A stretch of DNA of 48,097 nt from Spirogloea muscicola. Lineage: Eukaryota > Streptophyta > Zygnematophyceae > Spirogloeales > Spirogloeaceae. Numbering within the stretch: the stretch's first letter is position 1; each line of letters begins with the position of its first letter. The notes below the pieces were generated by a model, which did no database searches, had not been told where the DNA came from, and saw only the letters and a program-made list of their open reading frames with translations. The position numbers and the translations under genes are program-made. Location: NCBI GenBank assembly GCA_009602725.1, contig WELB01000083.1:139238-187334 (forward strand), in the 5' to 3' direction. This document shows, piece after piece, positions 1 to 44,760 of the stretch.

Positions 1-440
1 GCCCGCCGCTTCCATGGGGAGCCGGTGGACTCCCATGCAGCAGGGTCGCTAGCGCAGGTGTACCGCATGCGCTTGGCCGTCTCGCTGCAGAGGTCTATGG
101 CCCGCGCGCTGCACCTGCGTGCAGGCAGAGCCCTCGCTGCTGCCTCTGGCTCTGGCCGGGGGACCCGCTTCCAGGAATTCAGTCTCTCTGACCTGAGGCT
201 GCTTAGCAGGGGTTACTGAGTGCTTCGTACCTGCTTCGTTTCTTTTCTGTGCTTGTTGTTCTTCGTACTTCCCCTGGCCCCTTCTCGTCCTTTGTTCATT
301 CTTTTCTGGGCTGGCTTTTTCCAGCCCCTATCCTCAATGGGCGAGCCCTTCTCTCTCTTTTTTTGGGCTGGCTTTGCCAGCCCCTCTTCTCTATGGGCGC
401 GCACTTCTCTTTCCGGCAGCTAGTCTGTCGGATGTGAGGC
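1..440 (+). mobile_element. 3' end of a LINE-like element: C-terminal coding fragment plus hairpin tail
   Basis: Frame 1 is open from the window edge to a stop at 217-219. It ends in the peptide SDLRLLSRGY, which recurs with small changes at about 1347, 17310, 25241, 27708 (minus) and 44156. The stop is followed by a non-coding tail with two hairpins: one near 308-327 (7-bp stem, GGGCTGG/CCAGCCC) and one near 367-385 (8-bp stem). Each is followed 10-15 bases later by a box like ATGGGCGAGC. The repeated pairing of the same last codons with the same tail marks this as the 3' terminus of a retroelement family. The endonuclease fragment at 855-1347 carries the same C-terminal signature, which suggests a restriction-like-endonuclease LINE. 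The copy is truncated at the window edge. Confidence 0.6.
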
Positions 441-800
441 TCCCCACTCGTAAGTATGAGTGGTCCATCCCCCGTTCTGCCATGGCCCCGCAGTCGCTGC
501 TTAGCTCGTAGTTTGGCCCCTTCGAACCTTGTCACTTCTTTTCGGGCTGGCTTCTCACAGCCCTTGCCTTCATTGGGAGAGCCCATTCCTCTATCCTCAA
601 TGGGCGAGCCCTGCCTTGTTTTTCTTGGCGCTTCCCCTGTCAATTCTTTACGGGCTGGCTTCTCACAGCCCTTGCCCCCATTGGGAGAGCCACTTCTTCC
701 CCTGTCCCACTTCTCGTACTTTGTTCATTCTATTTTGAGAGCAAGCGCGGCCAGATTAACTGGTGGCCGGGAGAGGTTTGGGCTGGCTTTGCCAGCCCCT
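441..800 (+). repeat. Dispersed hairpin tail modules of the LINE-like family
   Basis: Contains a second module type: a lead-in (pyrimidine-rich, then CCCCTTCGAACCTTGTCA), the imperfect hairpin GGGCTGGCTTCTCACAGCCC and the box ATTGGGAGAGCC. It is present at about 520-580 and about 645-690. A third hairpin at about 780-798 is cut off abruptly after CTCTTCTCTATG, where unrelated endonuclease-coding sequence begins. The same module recurs near 1487-1545 and several times at 43840-44620. No intact gene lies here; the open frames are a by-product of the repeat. Confidence 0.6.
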
Positions 801-1560
801 CTTCTCTATGCTGTGCGGTCGTGGAAGTGAACAACATCATGCCGATCACCACGGATGCCCAGGGACGTCATCATCGCCGCACACTTGACATTGTGGGCGT
901 ATAACCTGGTGAAGGACCACGGGCTTTGGTCGATATTGTGGTTACGGAGGCCTATAAAGGTCCAGCATCGACACACATCGCTGGCCACGCAGTGGGCAGT
1001 GCTGAACAAAGAAAGTTGCAGCACTACTCCGATTACCCCCGATGTGATCAGCTCTTGCCAGCGACATCTTTGGCTGCTTAGGTCCTCGTTTCCTTACTCT
1101 CCTTCAAAACATAGCCAATCTAGGCTACACACGACACGCAGATGTGTTCCCGGCTGAGATGGGCTTGCCAGCTGCTTATCTGTCGTTGTTGCGACGACGA
1201 GTTTCGGCCTGTTTGCAGCGTGCTCAGGCTAATGCTTTGCACCAGAAAGCTGGGCGAGCTCTAGTTGGTGGCAGAAGGGCTTCGTATCTGCCATCTAGTA
1301 TGCAGGCATCGGTTAGCGACCTTCATGTTTTGACCCGTGCTTACTGAGCGGGTCAATCTACTGTAGGTTATGTAGGTCTTAAGATGTGCTTGCCTTTGTA
1401 CTTGGCCATTTGGCCTTCGTTTGTTTCAAATACACGATATTCTTCTCAATGGGCGCGCACTTCCCCTTTCTTTTTGCCCCTTCGAACCTTTGTCAATTCT
1501 TTTTCGGGCTGGCTTTTCACAGCCCTTGCCCCCATTGGGAGTGCCACTTCTACTCTACTG
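801..1560 (+). pseudogene. Degraded restriction-like endonuclease and C-terminus of a LINE-like element, with tail
   Basis: Read in successive frames, about 850-1150 shows the hallmark pieces of the restriction-like endonuclease of R2/NeSL-type non-LTR elements: an R..LDIV stretch, then DIVVTEAYKG, then an AE..K....Y segment, then FGCLGPRFLTLL. These are interrupted by stops (near 908 and 1078) and at least one frame change. A C-terminal segment follows from about 1144 and ends in VSDLHVLTRAY with a stop at 1345-1347, the same terminal motif as the other copies. The tail continues to about 1560 and contains one hairpin module (about 1506-1545). The element cannot be active. Family assignment rests on motif pattern, not alignment. 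Confidence 0.55.
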
Positions 1561-1744
1561 GAAGAGTCTCTCCTTCACAGCCAGACTTTAAGTGTCAGCA
1601 GCTGCAGAGGTGGCAAATCGAGTACCTATTAAGTGATGGATTTAGTGATGGAGGGCCTGAGTGGTCAAGTACAATGGCAGTCACACTGACATACATACAC
1701 GCTATACATGCTACACATCAAATGCTACTGCTGGTGGGGGGGCC

Positions 1745-4700
1745 ATGGCGCTCGCGCTCGGCGCCGCGCTCGCCCTCCTCCTCGCCGCGACCGCCTCGGA
1801 GGCCGCGCCCGCCCAGTGCCCGGCCGCAGCCGCCGCCGGCGAGGGCTTCACCGAGGAGCTGCTCCTGCGGCCGCTGCCGGGCGCCGTGCTCGCGCGCTTC
1901 CACTTCGCCAGCTGGCACGCCGGGACGTCGCGCCGCCACCACCTCCACGCTTTCCCCAAGGCCCTGGACCAGCTGGTGATACAGAACGCGCAGAGCCCAT
2001 TGGCATTATCAGAGCCCATTACTGCCATACCTTGACTGCTGGTGATCCGAAAAGCCCGGAGCCCATTATTGCCATACCTGTAGTAACTTAACTTACTGGC
2101 CAAACAAGGACTTGTGAAGCTCAAGACAATCTCTGTTGGTGCTACGATGGACCAGGAAAGGGTTTCGGAATCGTCGCAACCATGCCAAAGCCATCAAACA
2201 AGACACAAAGTCTCACGTATCATTCTGATGGCATTATCAGCAAGATTCTGGGGAGTCTGGTGTAGTAGTGTTGTCGGAGTATCTGCACAATGCGGTGTTG
2301 GCCAGCAGAGGACACTCAAGCTCAGCGGCATGCTCCGCAACTGTCAGCGCTGATTGCTAAAGTTGGTGCACTCACCACCACTGCCTAAAACCCAAACCCC
2401 AGACCCTAGACCCTTCTTGATCAAACCCTAAACCAAACCTCAAACACTAGAATTACCTCCACTGCCGTTTTGGCATGGGCGTTGCGGCAGCGACCAACAG
2501 TACAGTCCTTCACCTTGCTGGCGCCTGACTGCCATTTTCAGGTACGCGCAAACGGCGTGCTGGAGCTGGAGCTCAGCCTCACGCGAGGCCGCTGGCACGC
2601 GGATGCGTGGGGGCCGCCCGCTGGCGCCGCCGCCACTGCAAAGCCGCAGGGCGCTGAGCTCTGGGCTTGGCTGAGCGCGCCCCCAGATGAGGCCAGCCCC
2701 TGAACCCCAGTCCTGACTGAATCAGTCCTGGATACCAGCTTACAGCTCATTATTGGTTATATTCCAATCTACAAACCCTTACTCTAGATTTGCTTACCTG
2801 AATAAAAGCCATTGTTAATGCAGGTGGATGCAACTTGGCGCAACCTCACGCACGCGCTCTCAGGCCTCCTCTGCGCCTCCCTCAACCTCCTCGGGGACCC
2901 TGCTGCTGCGGCGGCACCGGCACTCTCCTTCCGGCCCGACGGCGGCGGCGGCAGCTGGCAGCAGGGGAGCCCCGTGCGATATGGGACGCTGCCCCGGGAG
3001 CCCGTGTGCACCGAGAACCTCACGCCCTGGCTTAAGCTTCTCCCCTGCCGGTGCTGCCCTACACCTTACACCCAAAGGCCTGAACGACATGTCTTGAGGA
3101 TTAAGAGTCTATGTCACTGTGACAAAGTGACCAATTGATGGAGTGGCAGAGCCTCAAGCCAGACCTGCAGATTTCAGTGCGCCGAAATGTTCACCACCAA
3201 CACATACTTCCAGAGCTGGCAGCCCCAGACGATGCTGCACATGCCCGAGCTTGCGGCCAATGCCCAACTGAATCAGCATGACCCACAGAATCAGGGAATG
3301 AGAGGAGACTTTGAAAAACGACGTAAACAGTTCACCTCGTAGATCAAATGCTCATTGACATAAATGGCCACATTATCTAGCTCCTACTGCGCCCCTGAAT
3401 GCTGGCTTCCATTGCGCTGGCCCTTCTGCAGCAACTTCACAAGCATTGCTGGCAGCCCCGCCGCTCCGTGCGCTCAGTCCATCTGATGTCTGGGCGCTGA
3501 CGTTCCGCAGAGTCACAGTCTTAACCCCCCTATTCCTTAACCGCGCATCTTGAATCTCATTGTTGATGCTGACGGGCTTCTCCTTTTGCATTGACAGTGA
3601 CAAGGTCGGGCTGGCCACGTTGCTGAACCGTACGGCGCTCTACTCTGTCAGTATATGCCCTCACCCAATTGCCACTCGAAAGCCTTCTAGATGTAGTATC
3701 TAAGGCTTTCCTTGGCCTCCGCTCTAAGTTATTCACTTTTGCAGCCTGTGAAGTCCAGCAATTAGTGTTTATTATTTCAAGAGTACGGAGCCCAGATTCT
3801 GGCCAGTAGTCGTTCTTGCTGCTGATAGATAGCATTGACTGTTGACATTGAAAGTCTCGCGGTCGCCACTTGGCAGTCTGTTGCTCGGCAGATGTCTGGT
3901 GGCCGCATGTGGCAATGGGCTGAGATACCCAATGTGGACTCGTTCTACTATTCTTGGCTGGCGTGTCGTTGATACGTGTCCTTGTCTCATCTACACAGGC
4001 CGCTTATCACAGCCTGCGCATCCACATCAGAGCTGAGCACCCAGCAGGGGGTGGCGGCGGCGGCGGCGCTGCTGGCCGGGACGAGCCCCGTGGGGTGTTC
4101 GTGCAGCAGACACTGACGCTGGTCCTGAGGGCGTCGCGGCAGGACCATCTACAAGACCAAAGCGCCAGCCGACCAGAGGATTGGTCTCTCGCTTCATTGT
4201 TTGGTTCGTCGGTCACCTCCGCTTGCCCGCTGGCATTGAGCAGCGCCGTGTATCTGGAGCTCGAGCAAAACTTGCTGGCAAAGGCCGTGTCCTCGCAGCA
4301 TCCACATGAAGGCGAGACAGAGGCGCTCAAAGAGGAGGAGGAAGGAGTCTGCGGCAAAGAGCTGGCAAGTGAGGGCCCATGTTTAAAAGCGGAGCTTGTG
4401 GAGAATGAGGCGTTTGTGCTTCGCACACCACCCGACCGCTGGCTGGAGGAGCGACCCGCGTCCCACGGCCGTGAGCGTCACCATGCTGGCGGGTTGCTGG
4501 CCGAGTATCGACTTGAGAAGTCAGCGGCTGCACGTCTCCTGAATGTGGGCATTGCATGGAAGCGCCGCCCTTTGGCGTGGGCGGCGCCGCCCCTCGCGCC
4601 GTTTCGTGTGCACAGCTACGTCACAGGCTATGGGAATGAGCGAGGCGGCCTCGCAGTCGAGCTGTGGGCCGATCCCGAGTGGAGAGCAGGCGTGGAGCGG

Positions 4701-6020
4701 CGGCGCCTCCAGCCAGAAGCGCCGCCACTCGGCAGTGACGACGACGATGGCGGCTTTGCGGATGTCCTTGGTTTTGAGGAGCAGGGGTGGCGGAAGGTCG
4801 ACGAGGCGGAGCTCCTCGTGGTCGACGACCGGCCGACTGATGCCACGGCGGTCGACGGGGGCATAGCCGTGGTGCTCTTTCTGGTGGTGCCGTGGTACCT
4901 GCGCCTGTACTTCCATTCCCTTGTCATCCTGGTGGACAATGTAAACGTGGCCCTCAAGGACCTGGCGGAGGACCTGCACATCTCCCCTGCTGAGGACCGG
5001 CAGGCGCCTGCCGTCCTTGAGGCACGGCTGCGGTTGCCCTCTCTCACGTCCACGGTGCAACTCCACATCGATTTCGACAAGGTGAGGTCATGGGAAGAGC
5101 AGATCGTCAGACCAGATTGTCAGACCCTCGACATATCACAAACACAAGAAATGTATGCAGTCACAACGCTCATGACGGTCTAAGTAACTCGATGATGAGC
5201 AGCATCTAATGTATGTTGAGCTCTACATTGACAAGTAATGTCTGTGCTTGTAGGCGTTTCTCTGGATCGATGAGCACCCCCCCGATGCAAGCCGTGGCTT
5301 TGACCTGCCAGCCGCAGTTGTGACATTTCCAGACATTCCCAGCAGCACTGGGTATGAGTGGGATGTGGAGAATGCCTCGGCGCTCGAATACAGGTCACTC
5401 CTGCAGACCTTGCTGGTATGTACCCTTGTCTTCAATGATGCGAGACCGAGGAATATTTATGTTTAAATTGTGCTGTAACGTCTAAAAGTTCTCATGCTGT
5501 AGCGTCACGGCTGTTTTAGTCCCTTAACTGGCTTTGGGTGCCTTGCTCAACGTTGACGAAGTTCTTGGCTTGCTTGTACACCTGCATGGGTTGTGGCCTG
5601 CAGCGGGCACCACCACTGAGGCTCTATGGCGATACTCTCCTAGTGCCAATGCCTATTCCCGACTTCAGTATGCCGTATAACGTTATTACGCTCACCTGCA
5701 CTGTGATTGCGATGTTCTTCGGCTCCCTCTTCAACACCTTGCGGCATCGACCCGGCGAGGATGAGCAACCTGATGGAGGTGAGCAATGTGGACTCACACC
5801 TGTTGCTCAGTGGCAACTGTTCCTGGCGAAGATGCTTGCTCCTCACATTTGAGAGCATGCTCGGTGCTACATGTGTGGTGACTTCTAATGTCCAGAGCGT
5901 TTGTCATGAGAACATGCAGCTGTGCCCCAAACGGACAGCTTGAAGACTGTCTTGTACAAGAAAGTGCAAGATTGGCGGGCTCGCTTCTGGAGACAAGGAG
6001 ATCCCAACACAAAGATGTAG
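1745..6020 (+). CDS. PIGT: GPI transamidase component PIG-T (Gpi16 family)
   Basis: Predicted 725-residue subunit of the ER-membrane GPI transamidase, which swaps C-terminal propeptides for GPI anchors. Exons: 1745-1975, 2542-2691, 2824-3050, 3598-3646, 3999-5081, 5254-5415, 5604-5778, 5920-6020; all phases agree. Residues 1-20 form a signal peptide, so the ATG at 1745 is preferred. Conserved landmarks in order: FPKALDQL (exon 1), GAELWAWL (2), CTENLTPWLKLLPCR (3), DKVGLATLLNR (4), AYHSLRIHI and VPWYLRLYFHSL (5), PDFSMPYNVITLTC leading into the transmembrane segment at about 660-680 (7). Exon 8 supplies a short basic tail with its stop. Intron 2 must start with GC (2692) for the alignment to hold. 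Exon 5 carries an acidic insertion (DDDD near 4737). Intron 1 holds telomere-like repeats. Confidence 0.9.
2385..2449 (+). repeat. Telomere-like (CCCTAAA)n degenerate tract in PIGT intron 1
   Basis: The stretch is a run of C-rich heptamer-like units (AAACCCAAACCCC, ACCCTAGACCC) and includes one perfect AAACCCTAAACC at 2423-2434. This is the plant/green-algal telomere repeat in its C-rich orientation on the sense strand of PIGT. Comparable tracts occur in intron 1 of the gene at 44954 and in an intron of the gene at 46872, again with the C-rich strand as the sense strand. Confidence 0.7.
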
Positions 6021-7431
6021 TTGCTTATGCGCGCAAGAATGTAGTTGCTAATGTGCACAGCAATACAAGTCCCGCCAAGTCAAGTGGCCGCACCTACTTA
6101 CTATCAGCGCTTCAGCAACATCGTACAAACGGACACTCGCGAGGATCTCTCGAGGAAGAATTTGAGGTACATGTCGACCAACGACGTTGAGCATGAGTGC
6201 CTAGGTATGGCGTGAGAGCCAAGATGTCTACGTGTCAGCTCAGGCAATATGTTGACTCTCCTTCTGTACAAGCTTCGTGAGCATTTTTGCATGTCTTTGA
6301 GATCTTGTCATGTCAAGTGCAAGCCAGAAGCAGCTCTTGTGGCTTCCTGCCTTCTATCAAATAACGTGAGTTTGTGCATGTGCAAGCTGTTGTGTATAGA
6401 CGCAGTGATTGTCTCACTGCAGCTGTAGTGTATTGACGCAGTGATCATCTCACTGCAGCTGTATCTTCTCATCTTGTTAGGTGGAGGGTTGCGAAGGCCT
6501 CAAGCATGAGGAAGTCGTTTACTTCACCAGTTGAAGTCTCCATCCCTCCCTTCGTGCTGGCGCTGGTCGTCGGACTCGCAACGGAATAAGCCGTCTTTCT
6601 CAGGTGGCCACTCTCACTCGTTCAATTACTCTTCGCCTCGTCTTCCGCCTGTGTCTATCAGTTACTGATGAGTTTAGTGAGCAGGTCACTGCAGCCATGC
6701 CAGCATCGACCCACCCCAGCACGAACCCAGTGCTTGGATTCTGCTTGCCACTGCGTCCAGCTTCGGAGCCAGCACCTAGAGTGCGTGGGCAGAGTCAAAC
6801 TAGAGCAACCTCTGTTGGCTATGCCGGAGTCCGAGCAATCGAAGTCAAGTGTAAGCAATACTCCTGTCCTGCTATTCTCTGTGCTGGACTCTGATGGGCT
6901 ACGTGATTGTAATACACAGCCCAGAGAATCTGGCACAAGGGTCGTCCCCTGTCCTCGCAGATTCTTACGATCCGACGTGGGTCGGCTGACGGTCCAACTC
7001 AACAACTTCTGAAGTCAGCGCATATCGCCCACGTGGACGGTGCACTGACCTCGATAACGGCCAACGCCGAGGCGTTTGCTTGACGGCGGCTGTCGCCGCC
7101 AGCCGTCCAGAAGGAACTTCACGCCCAATCATTCCCGTCAGCTGGGCACTCGAGGGCCAGCGCCTCGTGCGCAGCGCCACGTGTCACCCGGCGACTTCTA
7201 CATGCCAATCGCGACGCGCCAAGTTGTCGCCTGGAGGAGTCGCTGGCCAATCCGCAGGGCCGACGCTTGCACGGGCGACGTGGGGAAGGATTTCTTCGAG
7301 CTCCGAGGATGCCGACGGAAATCCTCGAGGCCCCTGGGAGTGGTCCCGGGGGGGGTGCAATCAGGGAGGAGGGGGGCGGGGCAGAGGCCCGGTAAGGCGA
7401 CCGTCTATGAGCGGGGAGGGAGGGCGGGCGG
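6021..7431. other. Intergenic region between PIGT and aconitase
   Basis: This holds the 3' flank of PIGT and the 5' flank of the aconitase gene. No conserved protein could be read in any frame. A 36-bp unit is present twice in tandem at 6393-6428 and 6429-6464, each unit containing the short inverted pair CAGTGA/TCACTG. From about 7040 onward the sequence becomes strongly GC-rich, with G runs near 7348 and 7432, as expected of the promoter and leader of the next gene. No TATA-like element was convincing. Confidence 0.5.
6393..6464. repeat. Two tandem 36-bp units
   Basis: Units 6393-6428 and 6429-6464 differ at only a few positions. Each includes CAGTGA and TCACTG, able to pair. It lies about 370 bp downstream of the PIGT stop. 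Confidence 0.75.
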
Positions 7432-7550
7432 GTGGGGGGGAGCTGCCGCCGTCGCGGAGACCCCCGGCCTTCCATAGCCATCCATCCGCGCCACCAGCCC
7501 CGGCGCCGCCGCCCAAGCACAGCTCCCCGGCGGCCGCCCAGCGGCGGCTG

Positions 7551-7551
7551 N
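7551..7551. other. Ambiguous base (N) in GC-rich leader of aconitase
   Basis: Single N inside a very GC-rich stretch. It may stand for a collapsed gap, so the reading frame upstream of 7750 is unreliable. Confidence 0.6.
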
Positions 7552-7749
7552 TTGCGGTCCGCGCTGCTCGGGAGCCCCCTGCGCGCCCTCGCCGCCGGTG
7601 GCAGCGCCGCCGTCGACGGCCGGCGGCCGGGGACTTCTCTGCCGCCGCACAGCCGCAGCGTTTCGCAGCTCAGGGCGTCTGCAGCTGCCGCCCCCGTCTC
7701 GCTGCGGACGCGCCCCCGCCCGGAGCTCGGCGGCCGCCGCGCCTCCACC

Positions 7750-14884: not shown

Positions 14885-14966
14885 TCCAGCAAAAGAAAGC
14901 TGACACTTATTGTCAACCTCGTGAAGGCAGCAAGTAGTCCATGCAAAAGAATCCTGACACATATTT
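14868..14966 (+). repeat. Direct repeat spanning the aconitase stop codon
   Basis: The segment covering the last codons and stop (GAAGGCAGCAAGTAGTCC at about 14870) recurs about 53 bp downstream (about 14923), followed in both by AAAAGAA and CTGACAC. The second copy lies in the 3' flank and is not translated. Confidence 0.8.
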
Positions 14967-17264: not shown

Positions 17265-17440
17265 GAGCCTAGCTTCTCTGACCTGAGGATGCTTCGTAGG
17301 GGTTACTGAGTAATACGTAGCTGCTTCGTTTCTTGTTGTGCTTGTTTTCCTTAGCGCTTGCCCTGGCCCCCTTCTCGTACTTTGTTCATTCTTCTTTGGG
17401 CTGGCTTTTCCAGCCCCGATACTCAATGGGCGAGCCTTTC
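17265..17440 (+). mobile_element. LINE-like 3' tail fragment
   Basis: Begins with the family's terminal coding signature (TCTCTGACCTGAGGATGCTT...GGGGTTACTGAG, 17276-17311) and continues with the shared leader of the tail, then the hairpin GGGCTGGCTTTTCCAGCCC (about 17398-17417) and the ATGGGCGAGCC box. Only about 175 bp of the element is present, with coding potential limited to the last few codons. Confidence 0.6.
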
Positions 17441-18305
17441 CCTGTTTGAGGCCAGCCCAAAGAGGTAAGCTCTCCCAGAGGGGGCCGGAAATCGCTGATA
17501 AACACAAGCAAGCAAGTACCATGTAGGATAGTCACTTTGTAAGATCACTGAGTAAGAAGTGAGATACTTAGCAGCCGCAAGTCAGGAAGACCGACCAACA
17601 GAAAGCAGTCCCTTGACGAAAGCCAGAGGCTGCAGCTAGAGCATGGCCAGCACGCAGATGCAAGGCGCGGGCCACGGACCGATGGAGGGATATGGACAGG
17701 CGCATGCAAAAGACCTGCGCTGACGAGCCAGCGGCATTGAAGTCGGCCTCTGGCCCTGCCAGCGGGACAGCTTGGCGCGCAAGCCAGGTCTAGCTACTGA
17801 GGTCAGATACTCCGTGCACATCGATGGCTAGTAAAAATGTCTCGTCCTTTTCCGGGTGGTCTGCATACTTGGCCTACTTGGCCTCTGGTCACTATAATTG
17901 AAGAGGTCTTGATTGGCACAGCACTTAGACCTGTTAAATCCACGGCAAAAGTGAGACCACAGTTGGTGTCTCTTTGAAGAACACGATCCGAGGCTCTGGG
18001 CGTTGCTGCCTGTCTGTCTTGCTAAGCGTGCATTGACCACCATGGGAAGTACGTCTTCATATCTATCCTGATTAAGCTCAAGCTCTGAAATAATAGCCAA
18101 AGCCGACACAGAGCACAGCGTCCAACGACAAATAGCTGCCAGCTTCAGGGCCCATCAACGCCAGCCAAACACGTATCCTCGGTATTATCCTGATCGCTGA
18201 GGTAGTGATCATGACATAGACCTGGCGGAAAAAGCCCGGCATACATCTGCAACCACTGCTAGAAGATCATGCGGTCAAATACTTGGCAAGTACCATCTTA
18301 TCAAG
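17441..18305. other. Unassigned intergenic sequence
   Basis: No recognisable gene. Short open frames on both strands show no family resemblance. The segment 17445-17520 (GGCCAG...GGGGCCGGAAATCG) resembles the ends of the repeat seen at 39520-39560. The right part is the 3' flank of the photolyase/hydrolase gene. Confidence 0.4.
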
Positions 18306-24601: not shown

Positions 24602-24914
24602 GCTCGTTACTCGTCCGCGCGGCTGGTCAGCGCTTTGGTGTCGAAGTCAGCTCAGCGTCAGGGTCCGTCAGGGTCAGGCGAGCTGCCAATGGTGCTGACT
24701 TTTGAGCATGGTCAGAAGTGCTGATTCCTCAGGAGACCGGATCTCACGAGTGCCCTGCAGTTCAGGGCCGTCACTGCCGCCACGCACGGACGTTGCCGAG
24801 CAGCACTGTAAACTGACGGCCAGCCATTGTGATGCGCCTGGGCGCTCGGTCCGCTGCACTGCACCCACTAAACCCGCGAAAGCACTGGTCTGCCTGCTTC
24901 TGGCCTCTGTCCGC
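24602..24914. other. 5' flank of the photolyase/hydrolase gene
   Basis: No gene recognised. The left part should hold the promoter and leader of the minus-strand gene. In-frame stop codons lie upstream of 24601 on the minus strand (TGA at about 24650), so the coding region cannot simply extend further. The right part grades into retroelement sequence. Confidence 0.4.
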
Positions 24915-25400
24915 ACTCGGTTGTACGCTGATCACCCTCCAGGCGAAGACTTTGCGGCCCTGGCCATTCACGGGGCCTTCGGCAGTGGCTGGTTGGATCT
25001 CCTCCGGCAGCTTGCCCGGCAAGCCATCGAGCGGCGGCCGGGTCTGCCAGGCTTCAATGCTGCCGGCTCTCTCGCCCAGGTATTTTGCATGAGGCTGGCG
25101 GTCTCGCTCCAGTGCTCTCAGGCTCACGCGGTCCACACGCGTGCCGGCTGCGCTATGGCTGCTGCCTCAGGGTCTCGCCAGAGTGCCGCTTTTCCTGCTT
25201 CGAGTTATTCTGATTTGCTGTTGCTCACTCGTGGATACTGAGCATCCATCTGCATCTTTTAATGTCCTGGTGTGTAGTTTTTTCTTTCCGGCACCGTTTT
25301 GTGGCCTTTGTGGCCTTCAGATATTGTCCATTCTTTCTGGGCTGGCTTTGCTAGCCCCTCTGTTTCTATGGGCGAGCAATTTCTTTCTTTCTTGTTGATG
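24915..25400 (+). mobile_element. 3' end of a LINE-like element (C-terminal domain and tail)
   Basis: The open frame here ends at 25239-25241 with YSDLLLLTRGY. Upstream residues parallel the copy at the left edge of the window (AAGSLAQV and RLAVSLQ in both). The segment before this corresponds to the post-endonuclease region seen at 1080-1140 (FGSGWLDLLRQLARQ versus FGCLGPRFLTLLQN). After the stop comes the tail with the hairpin GGGCTGGCTTTGCTAGCCC (about 25337-25356) and the ATGGGCGAGC box. The copy is 5'-truncated, the usual outcome of target-primed reverse transcription. Confidence 0.6.
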
Positions 25401-25427
25401 AGGCTGGCCACGGATGCCGCATACGCA

Positions 25428-27350
25428 CTCATGGGAAGAGGAGGTTGGGGTGCAGGCTCCGGGTGCGACGTGTGCCCGGGAATGTGCCAAGGCGAAAAGT
25501 ATGGGGCTGAGGGAATCTCCCTGGCGTGTGCCAGTTGTGGACCATAAGGTCGTCCAAGACTCCACTACACGCCACAGCAGCCGCCCTGGCCGGCCATAGG
25601 CCATGAGGTAAGAGGGGATAAAGGCGGGGAAGTGATCACGCAGCTCCTCCATGATGGCCCTGCGCTCCACAGTGTTAAAGGCACTGGCTATGTCCAATCC
25701 AAAAATCATGTGTGACGGGTTGACATCAAGAGCCGCTCGGATCCCGTGGACGAGGGCCTGTGCTCTGCAGGACATGCCACCTTCAAACTGGTGGGGTGAA
25801 AAATGGCTGGACAGCTGGGACTTCAGCTCGCCGCACAAAGCCTTGGTCACCAGCCGCATGATGACTTCCGTGATGGCGATGGGCCTCACACCCCCTGACG
25901 GCTTGGCCAGGGCCCGCAGGTGGCTGGAGTTGAGAGCGTCGGCAATGCGAGGGGGAATGGTGGCTCTGGTGATGTGCCGGCAGGTGGAGAGGAGCAGGGA
26001 GAAGCTTCTCTCGTCTCCATTTTGGAAGAGGTTCCATAGGTGCTGGAAGAGCCATCCAGAAGGGCCTCCAGACACCATCCGGGGGGCTTTGGTGAGGGCC
26101 GTGCGGAGCGCCTCTGTTGAGAGTTCAAGAGGAGTGGGGAGCTCGCCAACCCAGGGCTCAAGAGGGTGCTGAGGCGGAGGATGCAGCTGGCGCAAGGTGG
26201 CCTCTGTGGCATCATTGTTTGCTGCCAAGGGGTCGGGGCAGAGGGCCTGAGCGGCTCGAGAGAGCTCTCCTGCTCTGCCAAAGCGTCTTGCACGCCCTAG
26301 GTTGCCAATCATGGACTGTCGAGAGGGCTGGTTGCGAGTGCCTCCACATGCACGCCATTCTGAGAGCACGACCCGAGCGGCTGCTGCACGCTGCTGGGCC
26401 AGCTCCTCCCACTTGCCGCTTGCAAAGCGAGCCAATCTGTCTTGAAGGCATTTGCGACCACCAACGTCAAAGGAGGGAAGAGGGCCAAGCACGAGCTTGG
26501 GAAAGAGCAGGTACAACGCCCAGGCTGCCTCGCGTCCAGAGGGTCAGCTTCCACGCGTGAGAGGATGGGCGTCAGCACCTTGCAGCACCCACGTCGTGCC
26601 CATTTAGGAATGTGGCGAAGGTTGTGAAGGCCGTCGAGGATGAGGAGGGGGAGGAGGTCCGCTGTGGCTGCCCAATGCCAGCTCTCGGAAGAGGGGGATG
26701 GTGGGGGACGGGCTGTGCCCGGCAGGTGCGACGTTGCTGCCAGCTCTTCTTGAACGGTTCCGGCAATGTCGGGCATGAGCTGCCAACCCTCTTCTGTTGT
26801 TGAAACCGCGCTGGCAGCCCTGACAGGGGACCCGCGTGCCTGGGGCCTCTCCGAGGCCAGTGTGAGCTGGGCGCTGTTGAGGAGAGCGGCCCTGCCGACG
26901 ACGATGGCATCCGGGGCGGCTTCCAGCTTGATGACATCTTTCCACAACACGCTAAGGCAGCGGCGGAGGTAGAGGTAACAGAGGAGGTAGAGGGAGCAAC
27001 AGTGGCGGCTCCGGAGCTGGCACTTGGGGATGAACTGGAGAGTGCAAGGGTGGAGCTGGGGGGGTAGAGGGTCGGAGCAGAGCCAACAGACTCCGAGGCC
27101 GCCAGGTGGGGGAGTCACTAGATCGTGGTGGGCTAACGACAATGCCAACTCGCGGGTCCATGTTTGGGGTCTCGGAGTCTGCATCCGAGGTGGCCGAGCT
27201 GGGTTGCGCAAGCAGCCGGGCTGGCTCGACAGGCGCAGACACTCCTATGCCAAGGAACGCGGGCTCCGGTGTCGAAGTCGATGTTGTGGTCCACGGGCGT
27301 GGGCACAGTCTGAGGGCTGCGACCTTCGCTCGCGGCGGCCTCTGCACTCG
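25428..27350 (-). pseudogene. Reverse transcriptase with N-terminal zinc finger, non-LTR type, broken
   Basis: In order on the minus strand: a proline-rich segment (27347-26952); a CCHH-type finger, C-x2-C-x12-H-x2-H, in CQGCQRGFNNRRGLAAHARH (about 26830-26770); a linker with IPKWARRGC and LTPILSRVEA; and a reverse-transcriptase domain in one frame (26516-25430). RT landmarks are KPSGGVRPIAI, the motif-A region FGLDIASAFNTVER and the motif-B region TGTRQGDSLSPILFALA. The next essential motif (the catalytic Asp pair, usually Y/F-x-DD) is missing because the frame runs into unrelated sequence at about 25430. At least two frame changes separate finger, linker and RT. The finger-RT order matches R2/NeSL-like elements, so it may belong to the same family as the tails, but that link is inferred. 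Confidence 0.75.
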
Positions 27351-27970
27351 CTAGAGCTGGGAGAAGAAGAAGTGCTCGCCCATAGAGAAGAGGGGCTGGC
27401 AAAGCCAGCCCAAAAAAGAATGAACAAATGGCCAAAGCCAAAGATTTGGGAGCCGGAAAAAGGACTACACCACAAAACACTTCAAATCACGTAGACGATG
27501 CAGAGGGAAGCTCAGTACCCACGAGCGAGCAACATCAGGTCTGAGTAGCTCGCTTCAGGGAAAGAGAAGTGCGCGCCCTTAGAGAAGAGGGACTGGCAAA
27601 GCCAGCCCTACAAAGAATGGACAATGTCCAAAGCCAAAGAAAGAGGAGCCGGAAAAAGGACTACACTACGGTACACTGCAAAACACGTTGACGATGCAGA
27701 GGGAAGCTCAGTACCCACGAGTGAGCAACATCAGGTCTGAGTAGCTCGCTGCAGAGGCACTCCGCCGAGACCCAGAGGCGGCGAGGGGAGAGGGGGAGGA
27801 GCTGGAGCCGGAGAAAGGAGCTGGAGGGGCCGCTGGACGATGGCGGAGAGGTGGCCCCTGACGCAGTGGCGGCCCTTGACGCGGCAGTCGTGCTGCGGAC
27901 ACGCGTCCCGTCTCCAGCTCACCCCAATGGAAATCCATCAACGGGCTCGTTAACCCCCCCCCCGGCAATT
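27351..27970 (-). mobile_element. LINE-like 3' ends on the minus strand, tail unit duplicated in tandem
   Basis: Read on the minus strand, an open frame ends at 27708-27710 with YSDLMLLTRGY, followed by the family tail and hairpin. The same coding end plus tail then appears again about 185 bp further on (coding end near 27520-27555, hairpin near 27395-27412). The two units share the terminal codons, the pyrimidine-rich leader and the box TATGGGCGAGC (the first reads AAGGGCGCGC). They are therefore head-to-tail copies of a roughly 185-bp unit spanning the last codons and tail. Left of them starts the broken reverse transcriptase on the same strand. Confidence 0.65.
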
Positions 27971-28092
27971 AGTCAGGCATTTAGCTGTCGGTCATTGCGA
28001 GGACGACGCTGATGGCTTGGCACTCAGAGACTTCCATTACCGCGGCCGAGCATCACCGCCCGCCAAGGCCAGCCAGCCAGCCCGCGGCGGCG

Positions 28093-38506: not shown

Positions 38507-38586
38507 CGCGCGCCCCGAGGCTCGGCGGCCGTGGACCGGCTAGGCGCGCCACGNCGGGAGCCTCTCGGCGGCACTTCCGCCGCCGC

Positions 38587-38618
<32 letters not shown>

Positions 38619-39219
38619 CGGGGGCACGCGGCCACCCGCTAACAGATTCACTTACCGCAAGCTGCGGCTAAGTAGACGACCTCCAGCCCACGAGTCCGGT
38701 CCGTCTCTCGGCGGCTTCGCGCGCGCGTCAACCCTCGGTAACCGGGGGTTAACCGGCGGTTAAGTCGCGGTGGCCCCTAACCGCGGCTAGGCGGCCGGAG
38801 AGCCGTCGCAGGCGAACGGCGCGGAGACAGGAGCTCCCATTGGCGCGACGGCGGCTCCCCCCAGCCGGGGCCGTCAGAGCACCTCTAGGCCACAGGCTGT
38901 CAGTGTTAACCAGCGTCACTTATGCTAAAGTGTATTTCCGGCGCACCCTCTTCTTTCCCTGCTGGGTCAACGCCAGGTGGGGCCCGCCCCATCATTATCA
39001 CGGCGAGATGACGGTGAAGCCGGTCTTTGGATAATTCACCGATTCTATCTCGTAAGTCTGGTAGGTCAGCCCTTGTCCCCACGTTCCGATCCCGAGCAGC
39101 GCCGCTCGTGCGGGGCCGCCCAGCCGCTTGACGGGAGCCGTCGGGGCCGCGCGTGCCGGGGTCGGGCGTTGACTCTGTGGCTGGCCAGCCACATCGGGCC
39201 TTGTCAGGGTGTGCCTTAA
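38507..39219. promoter_or_regulatory. GC-rich 5' flank of the CNGC gene with TAACCG repeats
   Basis: Probable promoter/leader of the minus-strand channel gene. It contains a (GCC)n-type microsatellite at about 38578-38616, an N at 38554, and a cluster of TAACCG/CGGTTA motifs at 38739-38785 (GTAACCG, TTAACCGG, GGTTAAG, CTAACCGCGG). AACCG/AACGG-type sites are typical MYB-family targets in plants, so a regulatory role is possible but unproven. No gene recognised up to the repeat at 39220. Confidence 0.4.
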
Positions 39220-39530
39220 TCGTGGGACAGATCTTTTCGGGCTGGCTTTCTACAGCCATAGCCCCCTTTTGGGAGTGCCACTTTCAATCTATCTCATTTC
39301 CTTATTTTGTAGCCATCGCCCCCCCATTGGGAGGCAGTCTTTCTTCGATCGGGCATGCTCTTTGGGGCAGTGATTGTGAGTAATACGTAGCTGCTTTGGT
39401 TCTTGTTGTGCTTGTTTTTCTTAGCGCTTCCCCTGGCCCCCCTCTCGTACTTTGTTCCTTCTTTTTTGGGCTGGCTTTTCAGCCCCTATCCTCAATGGGC
39501 GAGCCCTTTCTTCTTGGTTGTGAGAGGCCA
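39220..39530 (+). mobile_element. Pair of LINE-like tail fragments
   Basis: A first hairpin module (CGGGCTGGCTTTCTACAGCC at about 39239) with a TTGGGAGTGCC box is followed by a second tail copy: the leader from about 39377 (GAGTAATACGTAGCTGCTTTG), hairpin about 39467-39484 and box ATGGGCGAGCCC at about 39495. The second is near-identical to the copies at 17305-17440 and 44340-44475. Confidence 0.6.
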
Positions 39531-40434
39531 GCCCGAACCGAGTCTACGAGGTCTAAGGGGTAAGCCCCCACACGTGTGTGCAAACGGGTCAGCAAAAGAA
39601 GCGGCACCGGCTACTGCAGGTGGTTACTCAGCAATCCCCAGTCAACAGCCGCCCACCGTTGTACCTAGCAGCAGCAGCTCGAAATTGAAGAGGAAGGCCT
39701 TCAAGAGGTAGCAATTGCTGTGAACGGTCAGCCCCAAGTAATGGATGAGGCATGGTGGACAAGTTCCAAAGGCGCCAGAAAATGTAACAACACAAATATG
39801 TAAATGACTACTATAGATGGGTGCTCAATGAACCTACTCAACAGCCAGAAGTCAGAGCAGCTAGCAGCTGATAAAGAGTCACCACGCTGCAAACCAAATG
39901 AAGACAGCCTAATGCAGGCCTGCCCGTAAATGCATGGCGAATACCTGACATTGCTGGAGCCTCCCTAGCATTCTTCAGGATAGGTCAGGCTCCTAGAAGC
40001 GGCTAAAAGGCTGCTCGAGCCAATCAATCAGAGAACCCAGCACATGACCTTATAGCGTATTTCGCACGCAACTCAGGTCTTCAAGTCACAGCCTCAGCAA
40101 TCTATTGTGGACGGGTCCTTTGTGGGTGCATCACCGATTGCTCATCAGTAGCTGCAGGTGCTTTAATCATGTACTCAGGTGTACATCTGAGTAGCTAAAT
40201 TATTGCTAAATTACATTGTTGAATTGCATATCTCTATGCTGCTGCGAGGATGTTATGAAGGCGTTGAGGGAGCTGGAAAGGTAGCAGGTGTGCTGAAGCT
40301 CAAGGTGCCTTGCTTTAGCCGCTTGCTTGTAAGCCCTGCAGTGATATGCAACACAGAGTAATGAGCCACGCCAGCGAGGACAATGGTCATACACGGCTGC
40401 GAAGGCTTGTGGTGCTAGACACTCTGGGAACTCA
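39531..40434. other. Unassigned sequence downstream of ORC6
   Basis: No gene recognised. A short open frame ending near 39711 (Ser-run then KLKRKAFKR) has no context to support it. The right part is the 3' flank of the ORC6 gene on the minus strand. Confidence 0.4.
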
Positions 40435-43236
40435 CTACAAAGAGGCCAGGAACTGAGCAGATTGATGGAGGCCGGAGCCGTGTGGTTTGGTGATTGTGGT
40501 CAAACCTGACGTTGTAGTCGAGGCGCTTTTACTCACGACAGCAGACTTCCAATCTTGATACTGTCTCCGTGTTGACAGACTTCGTGATTGCACACCTGGG
40601 ACCTGCACATAGTTGGTTGGAAATCAAATTATCCATGCAGTGCTAATTTGCATCCTGCAGCACTTGTGTCCTAGTGGACGCTGGCTTTCATGGCACTTCT
40701 ATCTGCTATTGCTCTCCACTGCTTGTCTCACTTGTAGAGAAAGCACAAGGTCCTTAAGAAACACTGCAGGGCTTGAATAGGAGATGCGTATGCGTACTTC
40801 CAGCTCCTCATCACTGTCAATGGAGCCATCGCTGCTCCATTCATCATCACCCGATAATTGGCTCTCCTCTTTGCGGTCCCTCTTGCCAGTCACATCTAGG
40901 AGTGCTGCACCATGCATTCACCAGTCTCATGAGCTTGATAAATTCTTGCATTTATGCAGTATAGAGCAAGTGTTGTAAGGCGTTGACTTGCAGACCATCT
41001 TGCTTCATGCTTCAGTTGAGAGCAGACTTGACCTTGGAAATGGTAAGATGTGCAAGCTAGAGTTGTCAGACTGTCGTTGGTCAAATTGACGGATATACAA
41101 AGTGTTGCCTTGACGAGACAGGCCAGCAATTGCTAGCTCCATATTCAATGAACTGCCCTTTCTCTTACATCTGTTGTGCTTCACGTCTTCAGCTGCTCGT
41201 CTTTCTTGATTGATGCCCAGTCTGTCATAGCACAAGTCAAGCATGGAGGTGCACACCTGGGAATAGAAGATCGGAATTATCAGAACAAGCCTGTTCAACT
41301 ATTCGATGAGGTGACTTCTCCATTGCCGGCAAACGTGTCAATCTCAACAGCTGCATCCCTGAGAACCTCCTCCACCACCTTGCTTGAGTGCAGGCTTGCC
41401 TGAATTACATCGGAAGTGCATCAACAGGTAATCTGCTTTGAGCAGACGCCAAGCAGCTCACACTAGCAAATTCTTGTTCTGCGATGCCAGCCACTTCGAG
41501 AAGCTTCAGCCTATCCACCTTGAGCTGCACCATTGCAACCAATGCAGTTTTATTGGTTTAGTATGTCAGTGACATATCCAGGCAATCCTACCTGGTCGAG
41601 TATATTGTATCGTACAAGTAGCACACCCCAAGTGAGTGCTTGCTTTGGAGGAGTATGAATCTGCAGACTGTCGAGTGCGCGTGTCGAGTGGTTTAAAGCC
41701 TCTGCAGCAGGTATAGTGCAGCTTTCAGATTCTAGCAAGGCTTAGCACCAAAATCATTCTGCATATGTGGTGAACTTGAGTGAATCTTACCTTGTGCTTC
41801 TTGGCTGTCAAGTAGAAGGTGGCTACAGCAAAAATCGGTCTACCGAAGTCCGCTGATGCTCTTCTTGATGCAGGTAGTGCAGCCAGGAACCTCTGTTTAT
41901 AGCTGAACTCAAAACATCAATATGAAATGAACAGGTGCAGGAGCACAATTGGTAATTCGGCTAGTCATCCTGCTCTGATAGACCTGCAACATCAATTGCA
42001 GATCTATGACCTGAAAGACAGGTCATTGTCTCCAAGTGCATGATGTTGGTAAGGCGAGTCAAGACTATTGAATGGCATGTTATAGGGTGATTGGTCATGT
42101 ACATTGCTAATGTGTCCGTGACTGCATTGACAAGGCGAACACATCCAAATTGAATGGCCAACGGCTTGATCTGGACCCCAAGCCTGAGAGAAGCAGTGAA
42201 CATGAGGTCACCTTAACGTTGCACATTACATAACGATGGGCAGAAACACACGACAATATGCAAGAGCTTGGGCTGATGGGTTTCACTTCAGTACAATGTG
42301 ACGTCCATTAGACCTAAAGGCTGCAGCTTGCAGAGTTTGCCTCCTGAAAGGAGGAGTATGGTCTAGCAATAAGTATTGCTAGACCATACTCAATGCAGAG
42401 AACTACGAATCTAGAAGAGAGAACACAATGCACCTTCAAATGCGAGAACCCAGCTGCAGAGGAGAGACATCTACAGGGTCAAAGGAAATCTTGACATGCC
42501 TGATTCCAAGTGCATTCTGCATGGCATTGAGTGATCTCAAGTAGGCCTTCTCAGACAGGCCGCTATATTTGATGCCCTTCTGCCTGGTCATTGAAATGTT
42601 GAGCCTGTATGAAGAGGACGCAGATTTCAGTGCAAGCGAGAACGAATGTAGATTGTCAAGACAGTCTATCTTGGCCAAGCAGTCCATTGCAGATTCAGCA
42701 AGTGGCGAGTGAAGAGCGCAGTGATACATGATAGTCACAACGCTCACTGAGCTACCACATGTGATTGAGAGCTTCACCGGAAGTGAAGACTTTAGCAAAC
42801 AATTTAGCTAGGCAATTTGGTTTGAGTCTTACAGGGAGCATGCAAGCTCCAAGCACAGTATTGTCTTGGCAATCTCCCCCTGGTTTCACAATTACGATCA
42901 GAGACATAAGCAGGCGTGATTATCGTTCTCCAGATATGAGGTATATAACGTCAATGCGACCATGAGATGACAATGCCAGATAGTGCTGCGATTGCGTCAA
43001 CTCTGCCAAGGAGGGTGAGACACTGCACCCGGTGCAGCTGCACTTCTAACGACAGCTTTTGAAAGGAATTGACACTGCTCCTAAGCTTCCTGAACTTAGT
43101 CAGTGCAGGCTCTCACCACCCCAAAGGACGCCGCCTCAAACTTGAGCTTGCAGAGTCGCAGCAGCTCCTCGGCCTTAGCCCGCACGGCCTTCGGGTTCTC
43201 CAAGTCCATTCGCTTGACGAGCTGCCGGACGTCCAT
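40435..43236 (-). CDS. ORC6: Origin recognition complex subunit 6
   Basis: Nuclear subunit of the origin recognition complex that licenses replication; 296 residues, close to the plant length. Exons: 43236-43117, 42879-42833, 42604-42500, 42183-42103, 41902-41791, 41524-41462, 41256-41169, 40904-40798, 40602-40435; phases agree. Landmarks: MDVRQLVKRMDL at the start, GEIAKTILCLELA, YSGLSEKAYLRSLNAMQNAL, LAIQFGCVRLV, YKQRFLAALPASRRAS, ATFYLTAKKHKLKVDRLKL and SMLDLCYDRLGI (the second cyclin-like fold). Exon 8 is an acidic Ser/Asp-rich linker. Exon 9 carries the C-terminal helix with YQDWKSAVVS. Intron 3 begins with GC instead of GT, required by frame and by alignment. A strong GT donor in exon 9 (GTC|GTGAGT) leaves open a further 3' exon. 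Confidence 0.9.
42354..42391. repeat. Perfect palindrome, 17-bp arms, 4-bp loop, in ORC6 intron 3
   Basis: Arm 42354-42370 (GAGTATGGTCTAGCAAT) is exactly complementary to 42375-42391 around the loop AAGT. A second small inverted pair, CCTCCT/AGGAGG, sits immediately to the left (about 42340-42355). It could form a stable hairpin in the pre-mRNA or be a transposon relic. Confidence 0.9.
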
Positions 43237-43387
43237 GGCCCCTGCTTCCCCTGACGGCCTCCAAGATCCTAACCCTTTGCTCCCTACTTGTAGGAAAGCG
43301 CAACTCCCCGACGGCAATGAGCCGCACTGATCCACACTGAGCCGCACTGCCGAGCGCCTGCCTCGCGAGCCGAGGCCGCCGCGAGCT

Positions 43388-43388
<1 letters not shown>

Positions 43389-43424
<36 letters not shown>
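43389..43424. repeat. (GCC)n microsatellite in the ORC6 leader
   Basis: About 12 uninterrupted GCC units, 150 bp upstream of the ORC6 ATG. Read in frame it would encode polyglycine, but it precedes the family's conserved start and is taken as 5' UTR. Confidence 0.8.
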
Positions 43425-43839
43425 TTTTCCGGCTCGCCAAATGTGCCCGGCCAGATGGTCGGGCCCTGAGCGCCGGCTCCGGTACAATCTGTCACTTCTT
43501 CCACTCGAGCTACCGACATCCGTCGCTTTCTCTCTAGGCCACCTCGAACAGGGGAGCAGGAGTGGTCACGTACAGGTCCGAAAATCGGCGGAGCAAAGTG
43601 GATAATCTAACATGTAGCGGAGACTTGTCGGCAAGCCGGGGAGACGATCGCGCGGGCGGGATTTCGAAAGTTTGAAGCCCCCCAGGCGGGGCGCGCGCGG
43701 GGCGTGGTGCAGACGGGACGTGGACGGCACGGGGGCGGCGCGCCGTCGGGCCCGACGAGGCGGTCCCTCCAGCCGGGGGCGAGTCCAGTCCATCCTCCCC
43801 CGTTCTGCCATAGCCTCTTCAGGCCCCGCAGTCGCTGCT
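43425..43839. other. 5' flank of ORC6, then unassigned GC-rich sequence
   Basis: Holds the presumed ORC6 promoter. From about 43620 the sequence is GC-rich with no recognisable gene. The end (TCCCCCGTTCTGCCAT, about 43797) is the start of the repeat module also found at about 466. Confidence 0.4.
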
Positions 43840-44760
43840 TAGCTCCTAGGTTGGCCCCTTCGAACCTTGTCAATTCTTTTCGGGCTGGCTTCTCACAGCC
43901 CTTGCCCCCATTGGGAGAGCCACTTCTCTTCAGGCCCCGCAGTCGCTGCTGAGCTCGTAGTTTGGCCCCTTCGAACCTTGTCAATTCTTTTCGGGCTGGC
44001 TTCTCACAGCCCTTGCCCCCATTGGGAGAGCCACTTCTTCTCGAGTCCAGCCCAGTCGGCTTGCCCCAGCGCTCGTCGCCTTCCTTACCTTATCAATTCT
44101 TTTCGGGCTGGCTTCTCAGTCTCTCTGACCTGAGGCTGCTTAGCAGGGGTTACTGAGTGCTTCGTAGCTGCTTCGTTTCTTCTCACAGCCCTTGCCCCCA
44201 TTGGGAGAGCCACTTCTTCCTTCAGACCCAGTTCGTTCGTCTTGAGCTGGCCTCTACTGAGTGGTCCATCCTACACCCGTTCACAGCCCTTGCCCCCATT
44301 GGGAGAGCCGCTTCTTACCTGAAGTTGCTTAGCAGGGCTTACTGAGTAATACATAGCAGCTTGATTTCTTGTTGTGCTTGTTTTTCTTAGCGCTTCCCCT
44401 GGCCCCCTTCTCGTACTTTGTTCCTTCTGTTTTGGGCTGGCTTTTCCAGCCCCTATCCTCAATGGGCGAGCCCTTTCTTACACAGTCTCCAGTTCTGCCA
44501 TCGCCTCTTCAGGCCCCGAAGTCGCTGCTTAGCTCGTAGTGTGGCCCCTTCGAACCTTGTCAATTCTTTTCGAGCTGGCTTCTCACAGCCCTTGCCCCCA
44601 TTGGGAGAGCCACTTCTTCTTTCTTACGGCTGCTAGTCTTCCTAAGGCAAGGTCCGGCCTCCGGCGGCGCCGAGGCAACATTTCTCAGGCTCAGGCCAGG
44701 TTGGATTGCAATTGTCCGTACCTTTGGGCTGGCCTCTTACAGCCACCAGTCATTTGGAAG
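43840..44760 (+). repeat. Cluster of LINE-like tail modules
   Basis: At least seven hairpin modules in one orientation: about 43880-43922, 43994-44032, 44103-44116 (cut short), 44185-44213, 44285-44312, 44434-44472 and 44572-44612, with a diverged one near 44728. Two types alternate: the CTTCTCA-loop type with ATTGGGAGAGCC, and the CTTTT-loop type with ATGGGCGAGCC. At 44115 the truncated module joins directly to the family's terminal coding sequence (SLSDLRLLSRGY, stop at 44154-44156). The 40 or so bases around that stop match those at 180-220. Confidence 0.65.

What the first reader, a model, noticed from the sequence alone, without database searches (positions are those of the whole stretch)
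1..44760. A dispersed retroelement module keeps the same last codons, stop and hairpin tail
The peptide end SDL-x-LL-(T/S)-R-(G/A)-Y plus stop is followed by a hairpin (GGGCTGG...CCAGCCC) and a box (W)TGGGMGAGC at 1-440, 1310-1545, 17276-17430, 25200-25375, 27395-27745 (minus) and 44110-44470. Most other copies consist of tail modules alone. Short copies starting inside the last codons suggest that the element's transcript is copied from a fixed 3' structure and usually truncates just upstream, or that non-autonomous units carry only this part. The hairpin plus box would then be the recognition signal for the element's reverse transcriptase. Two module subtypes (loop CTTTT versus CTTCTCA) may be two families sharing one recognition logic.
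Basis: partly seen in the sequence, partly recalled or inferred. Interest (0 to 1): 0.7.

Follow-up and report, generated by a model that had tools for sequence, protein, structure and literature searches.

The report
Shared hairpin tails of truncated retrotransposons
The repeated hairpin-plus-box pieces are the fixed 3' ends of several related jumping genes (LINE retrotransposons) that mostly copy only their last stretch, so the short repeats are explained by a mechanism already known from other LINEs.

Summary
In detail: the hairpin pattern occurs 11,071 times in the window's 153-Mb assembly (eukaryotic, inferred) and 0 times read backwards. The modules are 3' tails of related LINE retrotransposons. 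Six ORFs of 1082-1433 aa hold both the tail peptide and reverse transcriptase. Five tail families (A-E) end in SDLxLL-type codons, stop, hairpin and, in A-C, the box and a fixed 3' terminus within about 19 nt of the box start, without poly(A). Copies are 5'-truncated at widely spread points (median 99 nt upstream of the hairpin, n=144), and 22 of 137 have flank repeats of 9 bp or more against 2.4 in shuffles: target-primed reverse transcription with heavy 5' truncation. A SINE is not supported. RT recognition of the hairpin is plausible but unproven: stem changes are mostly wobbles, compensatory changes do not exceed control. In A and B the box pairs with upstream sequence; in C, D, E this is not above shuffles. 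Family X and the one Y copy seen lack this hairpin. Known mechanism, new members.

The parts
1..219 (+). C-terminal codons of a B-family LINE ORF, ending ...SLSDLRLLSRGY and stop (cut by the window edge)
308..355 (+). B-family 3' tail: hairpin 308-327, box 337-346, end in a CTTCTCT tract
365..412 (+). A-family tail fragment: hairpin 365-383, box 393-402
417..590 (+). C-family tail with degenerate last codons (read by eye); hairpin 544-563, box 573-582
640..700 (+). C-family tail: hairpin 652-671, box 681-690
780..810 (+). 5' half of an A-family tail (hairpin 780-798 plus CTCTTCTCTATG), interrupted by the X2 insertion
811..1436 (+). X2-family LINE copy, 5'-truncated, ORF end SDLHVLTRAY with stop 1345-1347, own tail ending in TACACGA; TTCTC(T/A)ATG on both sides (one mismatch)
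1437..1465 (+). 3' half of the interrupted A tail (box 1449-1458)
1470..1552 (+). C-family tail: hairpin 1506-1525, box 1535-1544
17270..17445 (+). B-family 3' end: last codons and stop, hairpin 17398-17416, box 17426-17435
24873..25392 (+). A1-family 3' end (left edge approximate): C-terminal codons to stop 25239-25241, hairpin 25339-25357, box 25368-25377
25470..26516 (-). RT fragment of family X (RVT_1 1.6e-11; 91% to eleven equally scoring copies elsewhere)
27562..27744 (-). A-family 3' end (SDLMLLTRGY and stop), hairpin 27590-27608
27366..27546 (-). A-family 3' end (SDLMLLARGY and stop), hairpin 27393-27411, box 27374-27383
39377..39515 (+). B-family tail starting near the stop codon; hairpin 39468-39485, box 39495-39504
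43789..44041 (+). two C-family tails in tandem (hairpins 43882-43901 and 43993-44012) enclosed by one 9-bp repeat CGAGTCCAG (43780-43788 and 44042-44050)
44315..44480 (+). B-family 3' end: last codons, stop, hairpin 44434-44452, box 44462-44471
44490..44618 (+). C-family tail: hairpin 44572-44591, box 44601-44610

Best explanation
The modules are the 3' ends of several related non-LTR retrotransposon (LINE) families with one long ORF (RT, then a C-terminal region that ends in SDLxLLTRGY or a variant). Shown: six ORFs hold RT and this C-terminus; the 3' terminus is fixed; copies are 5'-truncated at scattered points; a part of the copies has target-site duplications; some copies are nearly identical. 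Inferred: the element protein nicks a pyrimidine-rich target, primes on its RNA 3' end (CUUUCUUC), copies the RNA from that fixed end and mostly stops within a few hundred nucleotides. The conserved hairpin, in A and B enlarged by pairing of the box with upstream sequence, is the likely tail bound by the RT, as in stringent-type LINEs and R2. Because tails contain CTTCTC tracts they also serve as landing sites, which helps to explain nested and clustered modules.
For: Six ORFs of 1082-1433 aa hold both matches on one strand and in order (C251, C63, C111, C176, C19, C115). Conservation falls to background by about 19 nt after the box start in A (n=44), B (n=30) and C (n=26); young A copies are identical into the CTTCTT tract and then differ. 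Stop-to-hairpin spacing is mostly 97-105 nt in A; mostly 90-92, 79 or 101 in B subfamilies; 54-56 in four E copies. 5' breaks are spread. Longest flank repeat is >=9 bp in 22 of 137 copies against 2.4 per shuffle. Counts at <=2 mismatches: box 9818, 22-41 nt upstream of the hairpin 4170, last codons 4702, about 145-165 nt upstream 3146. No LINE-type APE match on these ORFs. Fold z: A2 -3.2, A1 -2.4, B -3.3 and -4.4. Clustering: 22 of 69 gaps under 1 kb against 4.1 expected.
Against: RT recognition of the hairpin is not tested. RNAalifold finds no inner pair changed on both sides; with inner and outer helix together 3 pairs have such a change against 2.7 in shuffles, and the covariation score is 0.104 against 0.115. 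The fold is not better than shuffles in C, D, E (z -0.5, -0.4, +0.7). Family X, and the one Y copy seen, end without this hairpin. RT was linked by position only to A, E, X and Y; for B, C and D only the ORF end was seen. Endonuclease type rests on motif reading. 115 of 137 copies show no flank repeat of 9 bp or more. The B 20-mer counts are not strictly monotonic (4170 then 4702).
Confidence: 0.85

Rival explanations
1. The short modules are a SINE or other non-autonomous unit with its own 5' end, mobilised by a LINE that shares the 3' tail.
For: Many copies are under 200 nt, and sharing of 3' tails between LINEs and SINEs is well known (PMC3747384, passages seen).
Against: No common 5' break: break density falls from the hairpin to 500 nt upstream without a peak. 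Copies long enough to tell continue into LINE C-terminal codons. ARAGORN finds no tRNA in 60 loci or the window.
Confidence: 0.05
2. Tandem and clustered modules come from template jumping of the RT between RNA 3' ends within one integration rather than from repeated insertion into tails.
For: Two C tails at 43789-44041 are enclosed by one 9-bp repeat; by eye, one tail joins B-like and C-like parts (window 613-671).
Against: Three X2 copies split an A tail at the same spacer site, with both tail halves present and different 5' ends, which is nested insertion (window 780/1436, L063, L064). In tail-to-tail junctions the pyrimidine tract hides any inner duplication, so this stays open.
Confidence: 0.25
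3. The hairpin is kept as a DNA feature or as an RNA 3'-end processing or termination signal, not as an RT-binding signal.
For: It lies at the extreme 3' end, followed by a pyrimidine tract and no poly(A).
Against: Sense-strand wobble pairs (34 of 775 cells at stem pairs 2-6) outnumber A.C cells (7), which favours structured sense RNA over DNA; but many are inherited family differences and the hairpins were picked by a pattern. RNA processing is not excluded.
Confidence: 0.25

Closest known systems
Stringent-type LINEs whose protein binds a 3' stem-loop (zebrafish ZfL2-1 and ZfL2-2; PMC4176376, abstract and outline seen; eel UnaL2 recalled)
   Same: Conserved stem-loop near the 3' end; stem kept while loops differ between families, as expected if stem and loop are read separately
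   Different: Those are L2-clade LINEs with an EN domain before RT; here no APE-type match was found. Compensatory changes are not above control, and several families in one genome share the stem sequence itself
R2 and other RLE-type non-LTR retrotransposons (PMC10499050 and PMC4640811, passages seen)
   Same: RT followed by a Cys/His knuckle and a D..D..K-like stretch (my reading of P0004); in R2, TPRT needs the 3'UTR, and 3' bases of the RNA can pair with the nicked target
   Different: R2 targets 28S rDNA; these copies are dispersed with at most a pyrimidine preference. The RLE assignment is not confirmed by any profile match
Entamoeba R4-type LINE and SINE-like pairs (Table 1 of PMC3747384, passage seen)
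   Same: Protist LINEs that share their 3' end with short elements
   Different: The short elements here are truncated LINE ends, not a separate unit

Membership tests
non-LTR retrotransposon (LINE) | ORF with reverse transcriptase | tested here: met
   RVT_1 1.6e-11 in the window fragment; six ORFs hold RT and tail peptide
non-LTR retrotransposon (LINE) | variable 5' truncation with fixed 3' end | tested here: met
non-LTR retrotransposon (LINE) | target-site duplications of variable length | tested here: met
   22 of 137 with >=9 bp against 2.4 per shuffle
APE-type LINE | apurinic-like endonuclease domain in the ORF | tested here: not met
   PF14529: 0 matches in the genome; PF03372: 10 matches, none at the positions of these ORFs; a very divergent domain could be missed
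RLE-type LINE (R2, R4, NeSL, HERO, CRE, Utopia) | restriction-like endonuclease C-terminal to RT | tested here: inconclusive
   CxC..H..C knuckle and ADL..ADVV..KERKY stretch in P0004 by eye; no Pfam or PDB match there
R2 clade | 28S rDNA target | tested here: not met
   pattern matches dispersed over C1; flanks of 29 fetched copies differ; no Rfam match in the window
SINE | fixed 5' end with RNA polymerase III head | tested here: not met
   spread 5' breaks, no tRNA
stringent-type 3' tail | conserved 3' stem-loop without poly(A) | tested here: met
   for families A-C, hairpin also in D and E; not in X and the one Y copy
stringent-type 3' tail | compensatory base changes in the stem | tested here: not met
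stringent-type 3' tail | cognate protein binds and needs the stem-loop | not testable with these tools
   needs biochemistry

The most novel reading that the evidence does not exclude
One 3' RNA tail, in A and B a two-tier fold in which the box closes an outer helix around the hairpin, serves as common currency for several LINE families in one genome (each RT can copy the others' RNAs). The same tails are also preferred landing sites for these families and for the hairpin-less X2 family, so tails seed their own arrays.
Probability: 0.15. Interest if true: 0.6.

Novelty: new member of a known kind. Interest (0 to 1): 0.38.

Why it matters
It gives a large natural data set (11,071 pattern matches and several families in 153 Mb) on what a LINE protein needs at the RNA 3' end, how early its reverse transcription stops, and how tails attract further insertions. 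The families without this hairpin (X, and Y by one copy) make a natural comparison. It also warns annotators that these short repeats are LINE ends, not SINEs.

Tried and rejected
Rejected: SINE reading; the box as an invariant linear motif (in A and B it pairs with upstream sequence; in D and E it is changed); an outer helix conserved in all families (own-family duplexes are no better than cross-family ones, and z is near 0 in C, D, E); template jumping as the cause of the X2-tail junctions (both halves of the split tail were found in three cases). A first idea that the C family ends in SLLSS (note) was dropped: its aligned end is SDLRLLTRNY. Led nowhere: Rfam on the window (0 matches); PDB sequence searches (for P0004 nothing related; for P0002 weak RT matches at E 0.02-0.065, among them an R2 protein). 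Paper searches listed no description of these elements, but the organism was not identified and only open-licence papers are held, so this is no proof of absence. Structure prediction was not tried, because its rule does not list proteins from genome-search loci.

Limits and rows dropped: RT loci L031-L060, L061 (the window itself) and L074 (overlap) were left out of the module counts. 27 query-selected modules, and those with under 600 nt upstream, were left out of the break histogram. A break is where the hairpin-anchored match to any other held module ends, so it can be too short for rare families or too long in tandem arrays. The C1 listing was cut at 1.18 Mb because later rows show only + places. 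The 30 hairpin loci are the first ones listed, all on contig C1; the loci are the best scoring; neither is a random sample. Alignment A1 holds 52 of the 77 sequences listed. In one search six of 69 tails were set aside as misassigned.
Full report
What was checked. The window lies at G000:C83:139238-187334 in an unnamed assembly of 153.1 Mb in 471 contigs. It is taken as eukaryotic from that size and from a Gpi16/PIG-T gene (Pfam) that by eye is split by introns. In the window the hairpin core GGGCTGGCTT occurs 14 times on + and twice on -, and the box TGGGMGAGC 14 and 3 times. Genome-wide GGGCTGGCTTN{2,6}CAGCCC has 5608 + 5463 matches and the same pattern read backwards has none. One of the six listed places (1310-1545) is a composite of three elements.

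What it is. The peptide end is the C-terminus of LINE ORFs. A search with the window's ORF end at 24702-25238 (P0001) scored 150 of 16,852 first-look candidates and gave 151 matches. A search with the window's RT fragment (P0002, minus strand, RVT_1 1.6e-11) scored 104 of 1488 candidates and gave 111 matches. On six ORFs (C251, C63, C111, C176, C19, C115; 1082-1433 aa) both occur in order and on the same strand. In L080 the last 618 residues are open from just before the RT YADD motif to ...SYSDLLLLTRGY. After the RT I read by eye a CxC..H..C knuckle and an ADL..ADVV..KERKY stretch that recalls the restriction-like endonuclease of R2-type elements; no profile or PDB match confirms it. No LINE-type APE was found: PF14529 has 0 matches in the genome and PF03372 has 10, none on these ORFs.

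Families. A local tblastn with five C-terminal ends found 126 ends in the 82 held sequences. Of 118 with at least 200 nt downstream, 97 have a hairpin-like match (up to 2 mismatches) within 260 nt and 64 have hairpin plus box; some of the 97 are neighbours or chance matches. Families keep a spacing from stop to hairpin: A (LLLTRGY, loop CTTTG) mostly 97-105 nt; B (LRLLSRGY) mostly 90-92, or 79 (loop TTGTT) or 101 (loop CTTGT); C (LRLLTRNY, CTTCTCA/CTTTTCG) 100 in three copies but 82-122 over all; E (FLLLTRGY) 54-56 in four; D (HLLTRGY, CCTCTCCC, different box) 64 in the one typed copy. Between eight family representatives the last 66 nt are 65-91% identical against 57-60% for shuffles, while the 3'UTR before it is within 0.06 of the shuffled level in 22 of 28 pairs (0.10-0.14 above in six). 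RT was linked by position to A, E, X and Y; for B, C and D only ORF ends were seen. Two families do not fit. X (LYVLTRGY) ends in TACACG(C/A)A with a different, GGCC hairpin. Y (LFVLTRGY; one copy, L093) has the box but no GGGCTGG hairpin.

Fixed 3' end and truncated 5' end. After the box start, conservation holds for 13-18 positions (tract CTTTCTTC) and reaches background by about 19 in A, B and C (n = 44, 30, 26). Near-identical A copies (L080, L081, L084, L085, L087; 99.8-99.9% over about 1.4 kb) part within that tract. The 5' break relative to the hairpin, for 144 modules with at least 600 nt of upstream sequence and not chosen through their C-terminus, has median 99 nt; its density falls from about 0.9 per nt next to the hairpin to 0.04 at 400-500 nt, with small ups and downs and no peak at the last codons. 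Breaks also fall inside the hairpin and spacer: 32 of 157 boxes lack the 5' arm, some of them through nested insertion. Genome-wide counts of 20-mers of the B tail (<=2 mismatches) are 9818 at the box (reversed control 0), 4170 at 22-41 nt upstream of the hairpin (control 35), 4702 at the last codons (0) and 3146 about 145-165 nt upstream (0). The box pattern also takes in other families, and the fall is not strictly monotonic.

Target duplications. The longest exact repeat between the flank at the 5' break and the flank after the box is at least 9 bp in 22 of 137 copies, against a mean of 2.4 when flanks are shuffled between copies; at least 8 bp in 30 against 6.3. Examples: CTACATAAAGCGG in L088; TCTGGACGT around a minimal copy in L072 (minus strand) that starts at or within the GGG of the hairpin. 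All 22 start with C or T, 17 with CT or TC, which fits pairing of the RNA 3' end with the nicked target; but the search window includes the pyrimidine tail, so this is only suggestive.

Structure. Inner stem pairs 2-6 are standard in 149-155 of 155 boxed modules (these were picked by a hairpin pattern, so conservation there is partly built in). In an alignment of 52 tails from five families (A1) RNAalifold keeps five inner pairs, none changed on both sides; the main changes are wobbles (C-G to U-G in 11, G-C to G-U in 6). A count with eight inner and seven outer pairs gives 81.6% paired cells (81.4 in shuffles), 3 pairs with a change on both sides (2.7 in shuffles) and covariation 0.104 (0.115 in shuffles); sliding the partners lowers pairing to 24-50%. 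In A and B the box pairs with UUGUYCAUU upstream of the hairpin, with fold z-scores of -3.2, -2.4, -3.3 and -4.4 and mean duplex z about -2.2 (n = 28 and 14). In C, D and E this is not above shuffles.

Clustering and nesting. On 1.12 Mb of contig C1, 22 of 69 gaps between hairpins are under 1 kb against 4.1 expected, 10 of them on the same strand. Among 21 X-type tails, three X2 copies (window 811-1436, L063, L064) sit in the same spot of an A tail, between hairpin and box, with CTTCTC or TTCTC on both sides and with different 5' ends, so they are separate insertions. Of 663 exact X2 ends genome-wide 13 run straight into this A-tail site; if each of the 11,071 hairpins offered one such 11-nt window I would expect fewer than one (my arithmetic). 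Tails thus act as landing sites. A pair of C tails within one CGAGTCCAG repeat (43780-44050) leaves template jumping open for some arrays.

Mechanism. Shown: RT ORF with this C-terminus, fixed 3' end, scattered 5' truncation, duplications in part of the copies, near-identical copies, nesting. Inferred: TPRT by the element's own enzyme and recognition of the hairpin tail. The latter follows from stringent-type LINEs (PMC4176376, abstract and outline seen) and from R2, where TPRT needs the 3'UTR and a core 40-nt region of it is resolved on the protein (PMC10499050, passages seen), not from a test here.

Verdict. New members of a known kind: several sister LINE families with a shared 3' tail and extreme 5' truncation. 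Ordinary in mechanism, useful in size and in its exceptions.

Noticed in passing
window 25470-26516, minus: RT-coding remnant of LINE family X, opposite in strand to the adjoining A1 tail; 91% identical over the matched region to eleven equally scoring copies elsewhere.
   Followed up: partly
window 1742-5183, plus: Gpi16/PIG-T gene (Pfam 6.9e-21 on 3954-5180); by eye it has several exons and one intron may start with GC instead of GT.
   Followed up: no
window 2385-2445; L070: Short runs of CCCTAAA-like repeats inside the sequence, recalled as the plant- or alga-type telomere repeat.
   Followed up: no
window 44104-44190: A piece of B-family ORF end without hairpin or box sits inside the loop of a C-family hairpin, with TTCTCA on both sides; its 3' end is internal to the element (GCTTCGTTTC), perhaps internal priming.
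   Followed up: partly
A-family tails, for example L062 and L070: A palindrome GGACATTGTCC overlaps the upstream partner of the box and could compete with the outer helix (a possible RNA switch).
   Followed up: no
L031-L060: Other RT families with long ORFs; only 1 of 30 best RT loci (L056) has the hairpin pattern within the fetched stretch.
   Followed up: no
window 735-778, minus: A partial D-family tail (CCAGTTAATCTGGCCGCGC) in opposite orientation among the plus-strand tails.
   Followed up: no
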